From: an uncultured Pelagibacteraceae bacterium
Lineage (GTDB): Bacteria; Pseudomonadota; Alphaproteobacteria; Pelagibacterales; Pelagibacteraceae
Length of the DNA stretch: 64,000 nucleotides
Reading direction: 5' to 3'
Assembly: GCA_902601785.1 (NCBI GenBank)
Contig: CACKOH010000002.1
Location: 59,210-123,209 of the forward strand
Shown here: piece by piece, positions 42,381 through 49,853 of the stretch
Layout: each line of letters begins with the position of its first letter
Position numbering within the stretch: the stretch's first letter is position 1
Notes under the pieces: model-generated
The model's database searches: none
Seen by the model: only the letters and a program-made list of their open reading frames with translations
What the model was told of the DNA's origin: nothing
Made by a program: the position numbers and the translations under genes

Positions 42381-43613
42381 TTATCCTATTAAATTTTGAG
42401 CTACCCATTTGTGAAATTGATGAGTTGGTTGATCCATTATTGGTGAAAAATTTCCTCCATTGTAAACAGGTGAATTTCTACCCTCTTGCATCCCTTCAAC
42501 TGCATTTATATCTTCTAACATTACATCTTTCCAAAATTTTAAATTTTGTTTTCTCATTTCTTTTAATTGTTCACCATTTGCACTCTCTTCTCCAACATAA
42601 TACATTTGCATATGTTCTTTTGTTTTATTCATTGCTAAAGGTTCTAACCAAAAAACATAAAAATGATCTACATGTAAACCAATCATAACATTTGGGAATA
42701 GAGCTATGTATTCAGAATTTTTTAACATACTTTTTTCCCAATTAGGAAATGTATCAAAAATTTTGTTACCTTTAACAATTTGATCATATTTTTTACTCCC
42801 TTGACCAGCAAATCGATTTGGTAAACCTTGAATGTGATAATGATCATTAATGTTAGATATTTTATTTAGTTCAGGATGAATTGTTGGTAAATGATAGCTT
42901 TCGCAATAATTTTCTATAGCAAATTTCCAATTGGTTTTTACTTCTAGGCTGAAGTAACCATAGTCATCTGATTTTACTATTAACTTTTGATCATCTTTAT
43001 TTATGAATTTCGACCATCTTTCTTCGAGAGGTTTTATGTACTGGTCAAAATCTAACTCATTTGAGTTAATATTTACAAATACTATATCCATCCAAAGTTT
43101 AGTTTTAACTTCTTTTAAATTACTCTTTGTTTTATTGAAATTTGTAGACTGATGATTATTTAAGCCACCAATATGAGGAGTTGCAACTAATTGTCCATTA
43201 AAATCATAGGCCCAAGAATGATACGGGCATCTAATAACATTTTTTAACTTGCAGGCCTTATCCATAAGTTTAAATCCCCTATGACTACAGACATTATGAA
43301 AAACTCTTACATCCATGTTTTTATCTCTGATTAATATCAAAGGAATCCCGAGTAGATTGCAGGGTTTGGCATCTCCAATTTTTGGAATTGAGCTTCCAAC
43401 CCCAATTGCTGTCCATTTATTATAAAAAATTTTTTCCTTTTCGTGAGCTAAATAGCCTTGATTTGTATAGCACTCATTAGGTAAGCCATTTGCCACTTCT
43501 ATTGGTTTGTCTACATTGTTGATCTTTTCAATATCTAGTATCTTCGATAAGGGTAAATTTTTAAGATTCTGATGCACAAAAAAAATTATCATTCGCATAA
43601 ATTTTGGCAACAT
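42381..43613 (-). CDS. Rieske-type ring-hydroxylating/demethylating oxygenase alpha subunit
   Basis: A 410-aa Rieske oxygenase. The 2Fe-2S ligands are Cys109-x-His111 and Cys129-x2-His132. The mononuclear iron site is in NYCESYHLPTIHPEL (His241, His246; Glu238 nearby). Such proteins hydroxylate or N-demethylate small molecules; choline, carnitine, glycine betaine and stachydrine systems all belong here. Its place upstream of a DMGDH/ETF operon favours a betaine-type substrate (inference). No reductase is encoded nearby. The start is uncertain: methionines at residues 1, 6 and 8 are all possible. Confidence 0.85.
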   Translation of the reverse strand: MLPKFMRMIIFFVHQNLKNLPLSKILDIEKINNVDKPIEVANGLPNECYTNQGYLAHEKEKIFYNKWTAIGVGSSIPKIGDAKPCNLLGIPLILIRDKNMDVRVFHNVCSHRGFKLMDKACKLKNVIRCPYHSWAYDFNGQLVATPHIGGLNNHQSTNFNKTKSNLKEVKTKLWMDIVFVNINSNELDFDQYIKPLEERWSKFINKDDQKLIVKSDDYGYFSLEVKTNWKFAIENYCESYHLPTIHPELNKISNINDHYHIQGLPNRFAGQGSKKYDQIVKGNKIFDTFPNWEKSMLKNSEYIALFPNVMIGLHVDHFYVFWLEPLAMNKTKEHMQMYYVGEESANGEQLKEMRKQNLKFWKDVMLEDINAVEGMQEGRNSPVYNGGNFSPIMDQPTHQFHKWVAQNLIG

Positions 43614-43679: not shown

Positions 43680-44408
43680 ATGAATTTTTCTCTAGAAATT
43701 GGACCAAAGACGGAAGTTGATGTGGTCCCTGCATTAAGTGATGTTTACATCACTATGTTGCCAGGTGGAGATTATAGAGAAACTGCAGAAAAGGCTACGG
43801 AACTTGCTAGAAAAGGATTTAATCCAGTGCCCCACTTTCCAGCTCGATCGATGCAAGATGAAAAGGAACTTAAAGATTATGTTTCCAGATGTAAGGACGG
43901 TGGAGTTAAACAAGTTTTAATTATTGGTGGTGGTAGAGAGCCTGCAGGAAAATTTGACAGTTCATTTCAACTTTTAGAAACAGGATATTTCGAAAAAATG
44001 AAAATAGGAATAGCTGGACATCCCGAGGGAAGTCCTGATATATCCGACTCAGAATTAGAAAAAGCTATGATAGATAAAAAGCCTTATGCTGATTATATCG
44101 TAACTCAATGGTTACTTGATCCTCAGCCTATTATAGATTTTATTTCTAAACAAAGCGTACCAGTGCATGTTGGAATTACTGGGCCATTAAAAATATCTAG
44201 CTTGATCAAGTTTGCTAATATTGTTGGGGCAAAAAATTCTATTAACTTTCTTAAATCTAATTTTACTAAGGCGTTAGATTTATTGAAACCTAAAGACCCT
44301 AATGATTTAATTGGGAAAGTTAAATCGCATACTGATAACTTCCACATTTATACATTCGGCGGCTTGAAGGAAACTAACAAGTGGTTGAAGGAGAATAGTT
44401 ATGTCTAA
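43680..44408 (+). CDS. Methylenetetrahydrofolate reductase-like protein (short MetF)
   Basis: A 242-aa TIM-barrel protein of the MTHFR family, shorter than the 290-300 aa of classical MetF. Recognisable are FSLEIGPKT at the start, TVRGG-equivalent LPGGDYRETAEKATELA, NPVPHFPARSM, LIIGGGREPAGKF, IGIAGHPEGSPD and TQWLLDP. It overlaps the demethylase gene downstream by 8 b. Running in reverse it would oxidise the methyl-THF made by that partner. A TTGACA lies 32-37 b upstream of the ATG, but its -10 is poor. Confidence 0.85.
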   Translation: MNFSLEIGPKTEVDVVPALSDVYITMLPGGDYRETAEKATELARKGFNPVPHFPARSMQDEKELKDYVSRCKDGGVKQVLIIGGGREPAGKFDSSFQLLETGYFEKMKIGIAGHPEGSPDISDSELEKAMIDKKPYADYIVTQWLLDPQPIIDFISKQSVPVHVGITGPLKISSLIKFANIVGAKNSINFLKSNFTKALDLLKPKDPNDLIGKVKSHTDNFHIYTFGGLKETNKWLKENSYV

Positions 44409-45759
44409 TGAATTTGACTACACTAAATTAAAACATGTTACTTCTGTTGATCAATCAGACAGAGAAGTACCGTACAATTTACGACAAAGTGGACCAACAA
44501 AAGTTGAAATGTTAATTTCAACAAGAGTGAGAAAATCACCGTATTGGCATTTATCAATGCAGGCAGGATGTTGGAGAGCAACTGTCTATAATCGTATTTA
44601 TCATCCAAGAGGTTATGTAAAACCTGAAGATGGTGGTGCAATGGTAGAATATGATGCGATTGTTAATCATGTAACTATGTGGAATGTTGCTGTTGAAAGA
44701 CAAATAAGAGTAAAGGGTCCAGATGCAGAAAAATTTACTGATTATGTAATCACACGAGATGCAACTAAAATTTCTCCAATGAGAGCAAGGTATGTAATTT
44801 TATGTAATGCTTATGGAGGTGTCTTAAATGATCCAATTCTATTAAGAATTTCTGAAGATGAATTTTGGTTTTCTTTATCAGATTCTGATATTGGAATGTA
44901 TTTGCAAGGCGTAAATGCTGATGGAAGATTTAATTGCACAGTTGAAGAGATAGATGCCTGTCCAGTTCAAATTCAAGGACCTAAATCGAAAGCTTTAATG
45001 AAAGACCTTTGTGGAGATCAAGTAGACTTTGATAACATGCCTTTTTATGGTTTAGCAGAAGCAAATATAGGAGGAAGAAATTGTGTTATTTCACAATCTG
45101 GTTTCTCTGGCGAAGCTGGATATGAAATATACCTAAAAAATGCAACTTTATATGCTGAAGATATGTGGAATTCTGTTCTTGAAGCTGGAAAAAAACATAA
45201 CCTTATGGTTATTGCGCCAGCACACCATCGAAGAATTCAAGCAGGTATTCTTTCTTGGGGACAAGACATGGATCAACAACATAATCCTTTTCAGTGTAAC
45301 TTAGGATATCAAGTCTCTTTATCTGGAAAAGGAGAATGGAATAAAAAAGGAGATTACGTAGGAAAATCAGCTTTAGAAAAAATGAAAGCAGATCTTGTTG
45401 ATGGAAAAAAACCTTATAAACTTCAATTGGTTGGTTTAGAGTTTGGTGGTAAACCAATTGAAGATTATGCACCTGATTTTTGGTTAATTTCCCCTGAAAG
45501 TGGTGGTGATCCTGTAGGATTTATTACTTCTCCTTGGTATCATCCCGAAAAGAAACAGAACATTGCAATGGGATATGTGCCATTTGACGGAACTCTAAAT
45601 GCGAATGGTTTTCCAAAAGGTAAAGTTGGGACAAAATTTAAAGTGCACTTACCTGAACAATACTCTGAAAAAGCTGGAGTTCCAGTTGACGCAGTTGTAG
45701 TTGATATTCCATTTAAAGAGTCTTTTAACGCTAACACAAGAGAAGTTGTAAAAGGCTAA
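44401..45759 (+). CDS. GcvT-fold THF-dependent demethylase, LigM/DmdA-like
   Basis: A 452-aa aminomethyltransferase-fold protein without any oxidase domain. It has AIVNHVTMWNVAVERQIRVKGPDAEKFTDYV at about 80-110, CNAYGGVLNDPILLRI, VQIQGPKSKALMKDL and SGFSGEAGYEIYL, the GcvT landmarks. Length and pairing with metF resemble LigM, an O-demethylase; DmdA (about 369 aa) is the S-demethylase relative. It probably moves a methyl group from an O-, S- or N-methyl compound to tetrahydrofolate. The substrate is not evident. Confidence 0.82.
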   Translation: MSNEFDYTKLKHVTSVDQSDREVPYNLRQSGPTKVEMLISTRVRKSPYWHLSMQAGCWRATVYNRIYHPRGYVKPEDGGAMVEYDAIVNHVTMWNVAVERQIRVKGPDAEKFTDYVITRDATKISPMRARYVILCNAYGGVLNDPILLRISEDEFWFSLSDSDIGMYLQGVNADGRFNCTVEEIDACPVQIQGPKSKALMKDLCGDQVDFDNMPFYGLAEANIGGRNCVISQSGFSGEAGYEIYLKNATLYAEDMWNSVLEAGKKHNLMVIAPAHHRRIQAGILSWGQDMDQQHNPFQCNLGYQVSLSGKGEWNKKGDYVGKSALEKMKADLVDGKKPYKLQLVGLEFGGKPIEDYAPDFWLISPESGGDPVGFITSPWYHPEKKQNIAMGYVPFDGTLNANGFPKGKVGTKFKVHLPEQYSEKAGVPVDAVVVDIPFKESFNANTREVVKG

Positions 45760-45800: not shown

Positions 45801-45911
45801 ATGACAAAAGGGTTTTTAATTGTAATTTGCATTACGATTGCGATTGCTTTAATAGTATTTCCCTTGATAGTCTCTTACAGAGCACAAAAAAATAAAAAGA
45901 AAAAAAATTAA
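45801..45911 (+). CDS. 36-residue membrane peptide
   Basis: ATG 45801 opens 36 codons: a short MTKGF start, one hydrophobic helix (IVICITIAIALIVFPLIV), then a basic tail with K/N repeats. The TAA overlaps the ATG of the Yip1-family gene by one base (TAATG), as in true coupled genes of this window. It could assist or regulate that membrane protein. The ribosome site is weak and the product is tiny, so doubt remains. Confidence 0.5.
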   Translation: MTKGFLIVICITIAIALIVFPLIVSYRAQKNKKKKN

Positions 45912-46456
45912 TGTTTGGTGAATTTTTAAATATAATTTTCAAATCAATAAAGTTAGATAAAACACTTTATTCAGATAATAAAAATTTTGCTGAAGCCTCA
46001 ATTTATTTTGCAGGTATTATAATGATTTTAGATGGTATAGCAGGAGCAGTTGCTGCAAATACAATTATAAAAACTGCAATTGCAATGTCTGGCCTTACCG
46101 CAATTATTACTTGGTTGATTTGGGCAATTTTTATTTATGTTATTGGAGTAAAACTTTTTCCAGATAAACAAACTAAAGTTTCATTCAAAAAGGTTTTAAC
46201 CGCAGTTGGTTATGCACATGCTCCAGGACTACTAAGATTTTTTGCAGTAACACCAGACTTAATGATACCAATAATTTTTCTTACACAATTTTGGATATTT
46301 GCTGGTTTAATTATTTCAACAAAACAAATTCTTAATTTAAAATCTAATTTCAAATCTTTTGGAATTATTCTTTTATCTTTCCTAATTATAGCGTTTTTGT
46401 CTATTTCATTTGTAATGAGCCGAATGAATATGCTGCCAGTTAATCAAATAAGTTAG
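45911..46456 (+). CDS. Yip1-domain membrane protein
   Basis: A 181-aa integral membrane protein with about five helices. KVLTAVGYAHAPGLLRFFAVTP near residue 100-120 is the typical Yip1-like centre (G-Y-A-x2-P). Bacterial members are of unknown function, often with roles guessed in membrane organisation. It ends 4 b inside the convergent 55-aa gene. Confidence 0.8.
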   Translation: MFGEFLNIIFKSIKLDKTLYSDNKNFAEASIYFAGIIMILDGIAGAVAANTIIKTAIAMSGLTAIITWLIWAIFIYVIGVKLFPDKQTKVSFKKVLTAVGYAHAPGLLRFFAVTPDLMIPIIFLTQFWIFAGLIISTKQILNLKSNFKSFGIILLSFLIIAFLSISFVMSRMNMLPVNQIS

Positions 46457-46620
46457 AGAGGGAAAATAGTTTTAGAAACTCTGCAAGATTTACAAAGTTT
46501 AAAACCTGTCATTATCAGATTTTGAAATACACTTTCATCCTCTTTTCTACATTCGTCACAGATATTATTTAAATCATTGCTATTCATATCTTTAGGGTCT
46601 TTATCTAAATCTTTAGTCAT
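46453..46620 (-). CDS. 55-residue protein with two CxxC knuckles
   Basis: ATG 46620 opens 55 codons to TAA at 46453-46455. The product has an acidic N-terminus (MTKDLDKDPKDMN) and two CxxC pairs, Cys21-D-E-Cys24 and Cys43-K-S-Cys46, an 18-residue gap that fits a four-cysteine zinc ribbon. The start overlaps the stop of the DUF3726 gene by 8 b, which supports translation by coupling. It is the last gene of the operon that begins with the M19 peptidase. No family recognised. Confidence 0.65.
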   Translation of the reverse strand: MTKDLDKDPKDMNSNDLNNICDECRKEDESVFQNLIMTGFKLCKSCRVSKTIFPL

Positions 46621-47221
46621 TATCTGTTAAACCTGCTCCAGCAGCATCTTTTTTAAGACTATCAGTTTCTTCCACAAAAGTATTTTCAGATAATTTGTAT
46701 AAACTTTTCCATTCATCTTCATTAAAGTTATCTTTATTTTCAATAAAATTTATCTCTATATCTTTAGAATTTTTGGGAAATTCTAAATTTAAAAAGTTAG
46801 AATAAATATTTACATTTAAATTTAAGAAAATTTCTTTTTCATCAAATTTAACATTAATTTTTTTTCCAATAATTTCTGAAGATCTGCTCAAAAATGACAA
46901 AAAAATAATTGGGTAGGCAATGCTTGAAAAATAAATTTTTTCATAATTTTCAACTATTTTTAGTTGATCTAAAAAACCAATTCCTAAAATGATTGGGCAG
47001 TAAGGATTTGAAGAAGAATTTGACTGATTTATTAAACTTAAACTCTCATAATTATTTTTTTCCTTATCACGAAAATAAGAGTTTAAATGTGTGATACCGG
47101 GTAAACCAAACATCTCTAGTTGTCTTATACATTTACCAATTTCTTCAGACTCGCCCCAAGAAAATCCAGCAGCTTTTGATGCTCTTTTAGCTGTAGTTTC
47201 AATCTCGCTCAAAGATTTCAT
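46613..47221 (-). CDS. DUF3726 family protein
   Basis: A 202-aa protein whose N-terminus fits DUF3726: SLSEIETTAKRASKAAGFSWGESEEIGKCIRQLEMFGLPGI. The remainder has alternating strands and no obvious catalytic motif. The C-terminal part is more variable. The family is uncharacterised. It lies 2 b after the 553-aa gene and overlaps the small double-CxxC gene. Confidence 0.75.
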   Translation of the reverse strand: MKSLSEIETTAKRASKAAGFSWGESEEIGKCIRQLEMFGLPGITHLNSYFRDKEKNNYESLSLINQSNSSSNPYCPIILGIGFLDQLKIVENYEKIYFSSIAYPIIFLSFLSRSSEIIGKKINVKFDEKEIFLNLNVNIYSNFLNLEFPKNSKDIEINFIENKDNFNEDEWKSLYKLSENTFVEETDSLKKDAAGAGLTDND

Positions 47222-47223
47222 TT

Positions 47224-48885
47224 TTAATTACTTGTCCTATAGACCCACTGTTCGTCATAACTTTTTAATTCATCAGGTAATGGTGCTCCTTGGAACATGC
47301 AAATTCTTAACCATTTATCTGATCGTGGATCAAATTTTAAAGCTCCAAAAAAAGATAGCTTTAACCGTAGCATATCAATAGGCACTATATTTTTACCGAT
47401 AGTATTATCTTGTATCTCAGAATATGGAAATTTTTCAACAATAAATACTCTTCTAACAATGTGTCGAAGCTCAGAATTTTTAGACAAAAATTCTGCAACA
47501 ATGGAATTATTTTTTGTATCTAACAATTTTTTATAAAGTTTTTTAACATCTCTAGCTATTGCAAGTGGCTGCTCTAATTCAGATCCACCTTCTTCAAATC
47601 TATCAGCTAATCTAGGCTCCTCTTTATTCTTAGAAATAAACCAAAAGTTTTGTGTATTTTGTTTTTTTTCAAAGTTTATTTTTAAAATATTGGAATATTT
47701 TTTTTCAATAATATTAATTAGGTCTTTAACTGTTCTGCTGGTTGGAATTGTAAAATATTTATCCTCATCAGAACTCATCTGACTTACTAATGGATTAGTT
47801 ATTTCATTATACGGTTCCATCATTATAGAAACCACATACTCAATACACTCCTCACATGCTTTCTCTTCTAACCAAAGATATATTTGGTTAAAAGGATATT
47901 CGTCTTCAAAATTAAAATTGTTATCAATAAAGTGGATAAATTTTTTTATATCTTTTAACAAATTTTTAATTTTAATTTGCTGATACTCACTATCAGTATT
48001 CCAACTGGTAATATTTTTTAAAGATTTTTTAAGGCAATCAATAAATAAATCACTTTCTTTTTTCTTAACTTTTTTTATTTCCCTTATTTTTTTTAAGGCG
48101 ATCTCCCTGCTCATTACCCAATTATTCAATAAGGTTGGATGATTTACAATAAATGGAGCCATACCTAATCCAGTAGAATTTCCAATACCTAAATTTTTAC
48201 AAATCTTTCTATCTAATACGACAGCTTTACTGGGATTTTTGTAATGAGCGACATGGTTTACTTGATCAAATGTAAATTGTCTAACCAAATAAACTAGCAT
48301 CATTTCCAATCTAAAAGGTCCATTAATTTCTTCTCTATTCTTAATTCTAAAACGATCTGCTAAGCCAAATTTTCCAGAACCATATACTGCTGTTGTTCTA
48401 TACAAATATCCCACATTTGATAGTAATTCTAAATCTGGTTGTTTGCCTTCACTTAATCTTTCAACCACATGATTGAATACTCGTACAGATTTATTTGCTC
48501 TAGACAATGTTAACTCTTTAAATGAAAGTCTACCAACTTCCTGCCTTGGTACTTCATTTTTAAGTCTATCAATATCTTTTTGGGTAGGAACACCATCATG
48601 TAATGTAAATGCGGCATCCCATTTTGTTGCAATTACCCTATCTGATCTTTCGTCATCTTTAATTTTATTTGCAAAACAAACAAGGGAATAAGTTCTTTTA
48701 TCTTTTCTCAAAGAATAGACTGCTTCTCCATAACCAAATCTATCTAAATTAAATAAATCTCTCCTATATTCCCAGTCTTTAAATTCATTAAGAAAGCTTC
48801 TTAAAAATGATAGTTTAGACTGATGAAATGATCCTAATCTTGATAGTCTCATTATCTTATTAGGATCTCTAAGTTGAACTTTCAT
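47224..48885 (-). CDS. Large conserved-looking protein of unknown function
   Basis: A 553-aa soluble protein I cannot place in a family. Notable parts are a basic N-terminus (MKVQLRDPNKIMRLSRLGSF), a glycine-rich GIGNSTGLGMAPFIVNHP at 234-250, a CEEC at 344-347, a LADRFEEGGSELEQPLAIARDV block at about 427-447, and a C-terminal LRICMFQGAPLPDELKSY. No signal peptide or membrane helix. It is sandwiched between an M19 dipeptidase (2 b gap) and DUF3726 (2 b gap), so it is the central piece of this operon. Confidence 0.7.
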   Translation of the reverse strand: MKVQLRDPNKIMRLSRLGSFHQSKLSFLRSFLNEFKDWEYRRDLFNLDRFGYGEAVYSLRKDKRTYSLVCFANKIKDDERSDRVIATKWDAAFTLHDGVPTQKDIDRLKNEVPRQEVGRLSFKELTLSRANKSVRVFNHVVERLSEGKQPDLELLSNVGYLYRTTAVYGSGKFGLADRFRIKNREEINGPFRLEMMLVYLVRQFTFDQVNHVAHYKNPSKAVVLDRKICKNLGIGNSTGLGMAPFIVNHPTLLNNWVMSREIALKKIREIKKVKKKESDLFIDCLKKSLKNITSWNTDSEYQQIKIKNLLKDIKKFIHFIDNNFNFEDEYPFNQIYLWLEEKACEECIEYVVSIMMEPYNEITNPLVSQMSSDEDKYFTIPTSRTVKDLINIIEKKYSNILKINFEKKQNTQNFWFISKNKEEPRLADRFEEGGSELEQPLAIARDVKKLYKKLLDTKNNSIVAEFLSKNSELRHIVRRVFIVEKFPYSEIQDNTIGKNIVPIDMLRLKLSFFGALKFDPRSDKWLRICMFQGAPLPDELKSYDEQWVYRTSN

Positions 48886-48887
48886 AA

Positions 48888-49853
48888 CTAAATTAATTTA
48901 TAGAAATTGTACCAGTTGTTTCCAAGTATTCCATTTGTCTCTTCATCAGAAAATCCAACTTTTTTAAGTCCTTTTTCGATATTTGAAAAACCCCTCGCGT
49001 CCTCAAACCATTGAGGTTGTTTGGGAAAACCAGGGCTATTTTTATTACCCTCACCAAAATTTGTACTTTTAGACCATGTTCCATTTCTCATCCACTCAAC
49101 AACACTATCGGGTTGCTGAAGGCAAAGATCAGATCCGATACCTATTTGTTTAGTGTTTATTATTTCAGCTGTCTTAGCAACCATCTCACAGAAACTTTCA
49201 AGGGTACAATTTGTGTTATCTTTCAAATGATGAGGATATAAAGATAATCCAAGAATACCTCCGCTATCACTTAAAATTTTTAATAAATCAGACGATTTAT
49301 TTCTTTTTGCAGGATGCCAAAAATATGGATTTGCGTGTGTTATTGCTATTGGTTTTTGACTTAACTCGATTGCATCGATTGTACTTTTTTCAGCTGAATG
49401 TGACATGTCAATTACTACACCCACTCTATTCATTTCTTTTATTACTTCGCGTCCAAAATTAGTAACTCCACTGTCAATATTTTCGTAACAACCGGTAGCT
49501 AATAATGATTGATTGTTATAGGTAAGTTGCATAAATCGACAACCCAATTTATGTATTTTATCAACTAAACTTATATCATCCTCTATGGGGGAACAATTTT
49601 GAAAACCAAAAAAAATTGCTGTTTTTTTCTCTTTATTTGCCTTTTCTATATCTTTGTAGTCCCAGCCTTGAAATATTATATCTGAATTATCTTTAAAAAG
49701 TTTTTCCCATTTTTGAGTCTCAGTTAACAACTCATTGTAATCTTCATGATAGACTATCGTAACGTGAACGGCGTCAAGACCTGCAGATCTATTAAGCTCG
49801 AAAGTTTCTCTTGACCAATTACAATATTGAAGATTATCAATTTTAAAATTCAT
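48888..49853 (-). CDS. Membrane dipeptidase-family (peptidase M19) hydrolase
   Basis: A 321-aa metal-dependent amidohydrolase of family M19. Familiar segments: CRFMQLTYNNQS, VVIDMSHSAEKSTIDAI, IAITHANPYFWHPAKRN and IGIGSDLC, which supply metal ligands. The N-terminal H-x-D common in M19 is replaced by a less clear VHVTIVYHEDY stretch. No signal peptide, so the enzyme is cytoplasmic, unlike renal dipeptidase. First gene of the operon with the unknown 553-aa protein. Confidence 0.82.
   Translation of the reverse strand: MNFKIDNLQYCNWSRETFELNRSAGLDAVHVTIVYHEDYNELLTETQKWEKLFKDNSDIIFQGWDYKDIEKANKEKKTAIFFGFQNCSPIEDDISLVDKIHKLGCRFMQLTYNNQSLLATGCYENIDSGVTNFGREVIKEMNRVGVVIDMSHSAEKSTIDAIELSQKPIAITHANPYFWHPAKRNKSSDLLKILSDSGGILGLSLYPHHLKDNTNCTLESFCEMVAKTAEIINTKQIGIGSDLCLQQPDSVVEWMRNGTWSKSTNFGEGNKNSPGFPKQPQWFEDARGFSNIEKGLKKVGFSDEETNGILGNNWYNFYKLI

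What the first reader, a model, noticed from the sequence alone, without database searches (positions are those of the whole stretch)
46453..49853. Candidate undescribed system: M19 peptidase, 553-aa unknown, DUF3726 and 55-aa double-CxxC protein
Four genes with gaps of 2, 2 and -8 b form one operon. Only the first has a known family. The 553-aa protein has no family I recognise yet shows conserved-looking motifs (glycine-rich 234-250, CEEC 344-347, a block at 422-451). DUF3726 is uncharacterised. The last gene is a four-cysteine knuckle protein under 60 aa, easily missed by annotation. A plausible model is a multi-subunit enzyme or complex with a zinc-binding small subunit that processes a dipeptide-like or amide compound.
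Basis: partly seen in the sequence, partly recalled or inferred. Interest (0 to 1): 0.7.

Follow-up and report, generated by a model that had tools for sequence, protein, structure and literature searches.

The report
Likely betaine-breakdown operon in SAR11
In SAR11 ocean bacteria and many other bacteria, three poorly understood genes travel together, likely to break down a methylated nitrogen nutrient such as the algal compound homarine; SAR11 adds a tiny protein with four invariant cysteines that is predicted to bind zinc.

Summary
The operon core is real and widespread. Of 289 sampled alphaproteobacterial genomes, 32 have DUF3726, and all 32 are among the 39 with the 553-aa protein. The two genes are neighbours in 31 of 31 fetched loci, and an M19-like gene lies nearby in 28 of 31. 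Sixty-four of 120 listed database proteins are natural 553-DUF3726 fusions. The trio also occurs in 9 of 9 fetched loci from other proteobacterial classes. The 55-aa gene is conserved (75 of 80 SAR11 loci; four cysteines in 76 of 76 sequences) but was found only in SAR11. The M19 protein lacks key metal ligands of true M19 dipeptidases. Outside SAR11 the core often sits with betaine-family transporters, a semialdehyde dehydrogenase, an Ldh-family reductase, RidA, LysR and sometimes folate-linked N-demethylases. Ruegeria pomeroyi DSS-3, reported to draw down homarine, carries such an operon. Best reading: betaine catabolism, most likely of homarine, probably the pathway published in 2026 (paper not held, identity not checked). 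New here: the reduced SAR11 form, the Cys4 protein and the degenerate M19 site. The chemistry of 553/DUF3726 is unresolved.

The parts
48888..49853 (-). M19-like protein (321 aa), first gene; degenerate metal site
   Evidence: Pfam Peptidase_M19 234.9 bits; closest solved relative 2i5g 'amidohydrolase' E 4e-54; Q85 in 53 of 54 and Y112 in 53 of 54 where dipeptidases carry E and H
47224..48885 (-). 553-aa protein of unknown family, second gene
   Evidence: no Pfam/NCBIfam/PDB relative by sequence or profile; 39 of 289 alphaproteobacterial genomes; 45 of 147 genomes of the window's family
48136..48189 (-). conserved LGIGNSTGLGMAPF..NHP stretch of the 553-aa protein (residues 233-250)
   Evidence: invariant columns of alignment A1, 31 homologues
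47599..47643 (-). conserved W..S..K.EPR block of the 553-aa protein (residues 415-429)
   Evidence: W415, S418, K421, E423, P424, R425 invariant in A1
46613..47221 (-). DUF3726 protein (202 aa), third gene
   Evidence: PF12525 80.8 bits; neighbour of 553 in 31 of 31 alphaproteobacterial loci; fused to it in 64 of 120 listed proteins
46616..46642 (-). C-terminal tail AGAGLTDND of DUF3726, conserved up to the stop codon
   Evidence: alignment A4 of 31 sequences; all 64 fusion proteins also end in a GAG..D-type tail
46453..46620 (-). 55-aa Cys4 protein (CxxC-18-CxxC), overlaps DUF3726 by 8 bases
   Evidence: 75 of 80 SAR11 loci; C, C, C, C invariant in 76 of 76, pN/pS 0.19; 2 of 289 genomes class-wide
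44401..45759 (+). GcvT/DmdA-like protein (452 aa), convergent neighbour, possibly linked
   Evidence: below the DmdA cut-off (227 vs 410 bits); near the operon at 2.9-3.0 kb in at least 69 of 80 SAR11 loci
43680..44408 (+). MTHFR-like protein (242 aa), convergent neighbour, weakly linked
   Evidence: PF02219 25.9 bits; strong match in 37 of 45 family genomes with 553 and in 43 of 102 without

Best explanation
The four genes are the SAR11 form of a conserved operon core (M19-like protein, 553-aa protein, DUF3726) that is likely part of a pathway for N-methylated betaines, most likely homarine (N-methylpicolinate). Shown: the 553-aa protein and DUF3726 are always neighbours where both were examined in the class sample and are often one fused protein, so they most likely form one two-part enzyme (inferred). 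Shown: the M19-like protein keeps two His, one Arg and one Asp of the M19 core but has lost other metal ligands. Inferred mechanism: the betaine enters through a BCCT or ProXWV-type transporter; the 553/DUF3726 enzyme attacks the N-methyl heterocycle; the M19-like protein hydrolyses the opened or N-formyl intermediate; in fuller operons an alpha-ketoglutarate-semialdehyde-type dehydrogenase and an Ldh-family reductase finish it to N-methylglutamate, which a GcvT-fold demethylase (sarcosine-oxidase/Mgd type) would demethylate. In SAR11 only the core is kept at this locus, with a 55-aa Cys4 protein predicted to bind zinc that would stabilise the complex.
For: Linkage: DUF3726 in 32 of 289 and 553 in 39 of 289 alphaproteobacterial genomes, the 32 all within the 39; same-strand neighbours in 31 of 31 loci, M19-like gene present in 28 of 31; 9 of 9 loci of other classes have all three; 64 of 120 listed proteins are fusions. 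Context: betaine-family uptake 9 of 31 versus 0 of 20 control stretches, Ldh 15 of 31 versus 0 of 20, ALDH 12 of 31 versus 2 of 20, demethylase class 10 of 31 versus 1 of 20. BCCT in 9 of 9 and ALDH in 8 of 9 loci of other classes. Both sarcosine-oxidase-type subunits lie beside the core in L046, L053 and L221; L221 (Shinella) also has ProXWV and purU. R. pomeroyi DSS-3 has LysR-ALDH-M19-553-DUF3726-Ldh-BCCT and draws down homarine (PMC12817926, passage). Mgd is reported to take part in homarine catabolism (PMC13390433, passage).
Against: No call ties these genes to homarine; the 2026 homarine paper is not held. The R. pomeroyi BCCT beside the operon, SPO3186 by gene order, is a DMSP transporter by mutant growth (PMC10130141, passage), and the P. 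inhibens copy lies next to dmdA. 14 of 31 alphaproteobacterial loci had neither betaine-family uptake nor the demethylase class nearby. SAR11 has no orthologue of the operon ALDH (best 31-35% identity). Distant copies sit with polyamine-type ABC, aminotransferase or DHDPS-family genes.
Confidence: 0.5

Rival explanations
1. The core serves another betaine or sulfonium compound (DMSP, proline betaine, glycine betaine or dimethylglycine), not homarine.
For: The R. pomeroyi BCCT next to the operon supports growth on DMSP (PMC10130141, passage); P. inhibens core next to dmdA; an M19-type dipeptidase gene and a hypothetical gene precede dgcAB in Vibrio natriegens and P. aeruginosa (PMC12093977, passage) and are induced with the dgc genes in rhizosphere Pseudomonas (PMC8079746, table passage).
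Against: DMSP and glycine-betaine routes are described without these proteins (general knowledge). An alpha-ketoglutarate-semialdehyde-type ALDH does not fit glycine betaine. The core occurs in soil and plant-associated bacteria.
Confidence: 0.25
2. 553/DUF3726 is an amide or gamma-glutamyl ligase and the M19-like protein cleaves the protected product, as in gamma-glutamylated amine pathways.
For: A ligase plus a hydrolase of dipeptidase descent is a known logic (general knowledge); ALDH is present in many operons.
Against: No nucleotide-binding or ligase family matches the 553-aa protein or DUF3726; the M19 active site is degenerate.
Confidence: 0.1
3. One reading: a dipeptide- or amide-processing multi-subunit enzyme whose zinc subunit is the 55-aa protein.
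For: The 55-aa Cys4 protein is conserved in SAR11 and overlaps DUF3726 by 8 bases.
Against: The 55-aa protein is absent outside SAR11 although the other three persist; 4 of the 5 SAR11 loci without it have the DUF3726 end intact; no peptide-related neighbours recur.
Confidence: 0.1

Closest known systems
Homarine catabolic pathway (Nat Microbiol 2026, 11:1531, doi 10.1038/s41564-026-02313-7)
   Same: Title and citation seen in the reference list of PMC13390433. That paper says Mgd takes part in homarine catabolism. An operon name homABCDER is recalled and comes from no call; five enzyme genes plus LysR in R. pomeroyi would fit such a name.
   Different: The paper is not held, so its genes could not be compared. 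SAR11 here lacks the ALDH, Ldh, transporter and LysR at the locus and has a 55-aa Cys4 gene.
pepD-hypothetical-dgcAB operon of Pseudomonas and Vibrio (dimethylglycine demethylation)
   Same: An M19-type dipeptidase gene and an uncharacterised gene in an operon for an N-methylated betaine (PMC12093977 and PMC8079746, passages).
   Different: The partner there is DgcAB, not shown to be 553 or DUF3726; no sequence comparison of the hypothetical gene was made.
2i5g amidohydrolase (M19-like structure)
   Same: Full-length match to the window M19 protein (E 4e-54), with the same GFQN in place of the Glu ligand and Y in place of H.
   Different: Function not given by the call; its genome context was not examined.
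Peptidase family M19 (renal dipeptidase, DPEP1)
   Same: Same Pfam family; two His, an Arg and an Asp of the core kept.
   Different: The Glu ligand, a substrate His and the HxD place are replaced throughout the group.

Membership tests
Peptidase M19 dipeptidases | Pfam PF01244 match over its cut-off | tested here: met
   234.9 bits against 26
Peptidase M19 dipeptidases | Glu bridging ligand (DPEP1 E125, numbering recalled) | tested here: not met
   Q at that place in the printed alignment to 1itq; Q85 in 53 of 54, one gap
Peptidase M19 dipeptidases | N-terminal HxD ligand pair (recalled) | tested here: not met
   L8-Q9-Y10 at the place after D6 in nearly all of 54; 2i5g also lacks it. Place judged by position; the DPEP1 N-terminus was not in the printed alignment
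Peptidase M19 dipeptidases | Two core His (DPEP1 H198, H219, recalled) | tested here: met
   H152 in 52 of 54, H173 in 54 of 54
DUF3726 (PF12525) | Pfam match over its cut-off | tested here: met
   80.8 bits against 22.1
Homarine (hom) operon | Sequence identity of its genes with this operon | not testable with these tools
   Paper not held
Homarine (hom) operon | Present in a homarine-consuming strain | tested here: met
   R. pomeroyi DSS-3 genome carries the core; it draws down homarine (PMC12817926 passage). Consistent only; not specific
Zinc knuckle/ribbon proteins (55-aa protein) | Two conserved CxxC pairs | tested here: met
   four Cys invariant in 76 of 76
Zinc knuckle/ribbon proteins (55-aa protein) | Match to a zinc-finger family or solved structure | tested here: not met
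   best Pfam ZZ 15 bits under the 21.4 cut-off; no PDB profile match
Zinc knuckle/ribbon proteins (55-aa protein) | Bound zinc | not testable with these tools
   needs purified protein

The most novel reading that the evidence does not exclude
The 553-aa protein and DUF3726 form a new enzyme class without detectable sequence relatives that opens N-methylpyridinium carboxylates, with the C-terminal GAGAGLxDND tail of DUF3726 reaching into the partner's active site, a repurposed M19 hydrolase as second step, and in SAR11 a dedicated zinc-binding mini-subunit.
Probability: 0.3. Interest if true: 0.75.

Novelty: new variant of a known kind. Interest (0 to 1): 0.5.

Why it matters
SAR11 cells are among the most abundant cells in the sea. 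A core of two proteins without known family found in 45 of 147 genomes of the window's family (23 of 27 in its own genus) probably handles a common algal nutrient. If it acts on homarine, gene markers for that flux in SAR11 would be M19-like/553/DUF3726 with the 55-aa gene, not a textbook set. The degenerate M19 group would also correct many 'membrane dipeptidase' labels.

Tried and rejected
Profile searches against PDB gave nothing significant for the 553-aa protein (best E 0.33, coiled-coil type), the fusion (E 0.17), the 55-aa protein (none) or DUF3726 (none). A Pfam scan of 60 members gave only DUF3726, in 44. The MTHFR-like and GcvT-like neighbours as obligate partners: rejected, because the MTHFR-like gene is strong in 37 of 45 family genomes with 553 but also in 43 of 102 without; it is associated, not required. 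An orthologue of the operon ALDH in SAR11: not found in G000, G207 or G098 (best 31-35% identity against 53% in G030 and G259). Phage records: no match. A 350-to-394-genome probe for R. pomeroyi missed it; the genus search found it. Homology of the S. meliloti-type partner to DUF3726: only a weak tail match (probability 12%, E 0.0024 for one comparison). DUF3726 in the literature: 0 papers. Control caveat: the families counted were chosen after seeing loci, and the 20 control stretches are arbitrary places in 20 of the same genomes, not random draws.
Full report
Observation. The four open frames are in the window at the stated places, on the - strand, with gaps of 2, 2 and -8 bases. Pfam recognises only the M19-like protein (234.9 bits) and DUF3726 (80.8 bits); the 553-aa and 55-aa proteins have no family in Pfam or NCBIfam above a cut-off. 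The window comes from a 1.04 Mb genome, and close relatives are Candidatus Pelagibacter / Pelagibacteraceae, that is SAR11.

Linkage. In an even sample of 289 alphaproteobacterial genomes DUF3726 occurs in 32 and the 553-aa protein in 39; comparing the two lists, all 32 are among the 39. I fetched 31 of those 32 loci (all but the window itself). With profiles, 553 and DUF3726 are same-strand neighbours (60 bases or less) in 31 of 31; an M19-like gene is present in 28 of 31, 24 of them directly beside 553. One of the three misses, L037, is a 5 kb contig. In an even sample of 398 genomes of the phylum 29 have 553, nine of them outside the class. All nine loci have an M19-like gene 1.5 to 2.1 kb from 553 and a DUF3726-like gene (8 beside 553, one weak hit with E 0.004 at 422 bases). 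The haloarchaeon Natrinema has 553 with a weak DUF3726-like neighbour (E 8.6e-6) and BCCT, but no M19 hit in the stretch. More distant copies in Neorhizobium and Sinorhizobium have an M19 gene and a different short partner that my DUF3726 profile does not reach. In three of the eleven other loci no DUF3726 was found (L207, L213, L214).

Fusion. A search with an 814-aa Mesorhizobium protein listed 120 relatives, of which 64 carry both parts (PF12525 and at least 630 aa). All 64 end in the GAG..D-type tail. The same tail, GAGAGLxDND up to the stop codon, closes most stand-alone DUF3726 proteins (alignment of 31). Two parts that fuse repeatedly most likely act as one enzyme; that step is inference.

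The M19-like protein. Its best solved relative is 2i5g, 'amidohydrolase' (E 4e-54, whole length), ahead of renal dipeptidases. In 54 aligned proteins (window plus 53 loci) the place of the dipeptidase Glu ligand is Q (53 of 54), the substrate His is Y (53 of 54), and the N-terminal HxD place reads L-Q-Y. Two His (52 and 54 of 54), an Arg (54) and an Asp (54) remain. The ligand identities of DPEP1 are recalled. It is therefore M19 by fold family but is unlikely to be a two-metal dipeptidase.

The 55-aa protein. Of the best 80 of 585 confirmed relatives of 553 in the genome collection, all 80 are SAR11 by title. All 80 have DUF3726 and M19; 75 have the 55-aa gene, usually with the same 8-base overlap. 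Of the five without it, L123 ends about 500 bases after 553; the other four have an intact DUF3726 end and no such frame visible. All four cysteines are invariant in 76 of 76 sequences, and pooled pN/pS is 0.19 over the last 38 codons. A profile finds it in 2 of 289 class-wide genomes, both in the window's genus. Zinc binding is predicted from the two CxxC pairs only; no zinc-finger family or solved structure matches over a cut-off.

Distribution in SAR11. 553 is present in 45 of 147 genomes of the family, 23 of 27 in the window's genus.

Context. In Phaeobacter inhibens the order is RidA, LysR, aldehyde dehydrogenase, M19, 553, DUF3726, then dmdA nearby. Sulfitobacter has BCCT between M19 and 553. 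Shinella WSC3-e has four sarcosine-oxidase-type genes, LysR, ALDH, M19, 553, DUF3726, Ldh, ProXWV and purU. Pseudomonas sp. MPC6 has Rieske, LysR, RidA, BCCT, M19, ALDH, LysR, 553 and DUF3726. The ALDH is closest to alpha-ketoglutaric semialdehyde dehydrogenase models, below their cut-offs. The Ldh protein is closest to sulfolactate dehydrogenase models, also below cut-off. Against 20 control stretches from 20 of the same genomes, the 31 loci had betaine-family uptake in 9 versus 0 (Fisher p 0.007), Ldh in 15 versus 0 (p 0.0001), ALDH in 12 versus 2 (p 0.02) and a folate- or B12-linked demethylase class in 10 versus 1 (p 0.02). Fourteen of 31 had neither uptake nor demethylase. The families were chosen after seeing loci, so the p-values are optimistic. 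In the nine loci of other classes, BCCT is in 9 and ALDH in 8.

SAR11 itself. The window operon has no ALDH, Ldh, transporter or LysR beside it; the best ALDHs of G000, G207 and G098 are 31-35% identical to the operon ALDH. A convergent pair, MTHFR-like and GcvT/DmdA-like, lies next to the operon in most of the 80 SAR11 loci (GcvT-like at 2.9-3.0 kb in at least 69, MTHFR-like at 3.9-4.0 kb in at least 65). SAR11 synteny is high in general. The MTHFR-like gene is strong in 37 of 45 family genomes with 553 and in 43 of 102 without, so a link is possible but not needed.

Substrate. By gene order these should be SPO3186 (BCCT), SPO3187 (Ldh, annotated comC), SPO3188 (hypothetical) and on; the tags come from passages of PMC10130141, PMC4334477 and PMC4809877, and the match of tags to genes is my inference. 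R. pomeroyi draws down homarine rapidly (PMC12817926, passage). PMC13390433 states that Mgd takes part in homarine catabolism and cites the 2026 paper (passage), which is not held. A chemistry that fits is ring opening of homarine, oxidation of a C5 semialdehyde, hydrolysis of an N-formyl or opened intermediate, N-methylglutamate, and GcvT-fold demethylation; every chemical step is inference. Against this, SPO3186 supports growth on DMSP (PMC10130141), and an M19-type dipeptidase also precedes dgcAB in betaine operons (PMC12093977, PMC8079746).

Verdict. The function is most likely betaine catabolism, with homarine as the leading substrate (0.5). What remains new is the reduced SAR11 version, the Cys4 protein, the fusion evidence and the altered M19 site.

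Noticed in passing
window 42381-43613: Rieske oxygenase, GbcA-like (122.9 bits, far below the 670 cut-off), near a GcvT/MTHFR pair: a possible second methylated-amine module.
   Followed up: partly
window 45911-46456: 181-aa protein without Pfam match, convergent with the 55-aa gene (4-base overlap), kept beside the operon in 72 of 80 SAR11 loci.
   Followed up: partly
L179:11944-15390: S. meliloti pSymB has a distant 553 (about 24% identity) with an IclR gene, a different short partner, an M19 gene and a transporter: perhaps a sister system for another betaine.
   Followed up: partly
L174:9956-12400: Natural 553-DUF3726 fusion on a Mesorhizobium plasmid; beside it lie an MttB-type methyltransferase gene and a DMGDH-type gene.
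   Followed up: yes
G154, G252, G451, G581: These genomes carry two 553 copies; the second copies may have another substrate.
   Followed up: no
PDB 2i5g: A solved 'amidohydrolase' shares the altered metal site of this M19 group, so it may be a ready structural model.
   Followed up: partly
L221:2438-7450: Four sarcosine-oxidase-type genes (annotated alpha, beta, gamma and delta) next to the core in Shinella; whether they are Mgd was not tested.
   Followed up: partly
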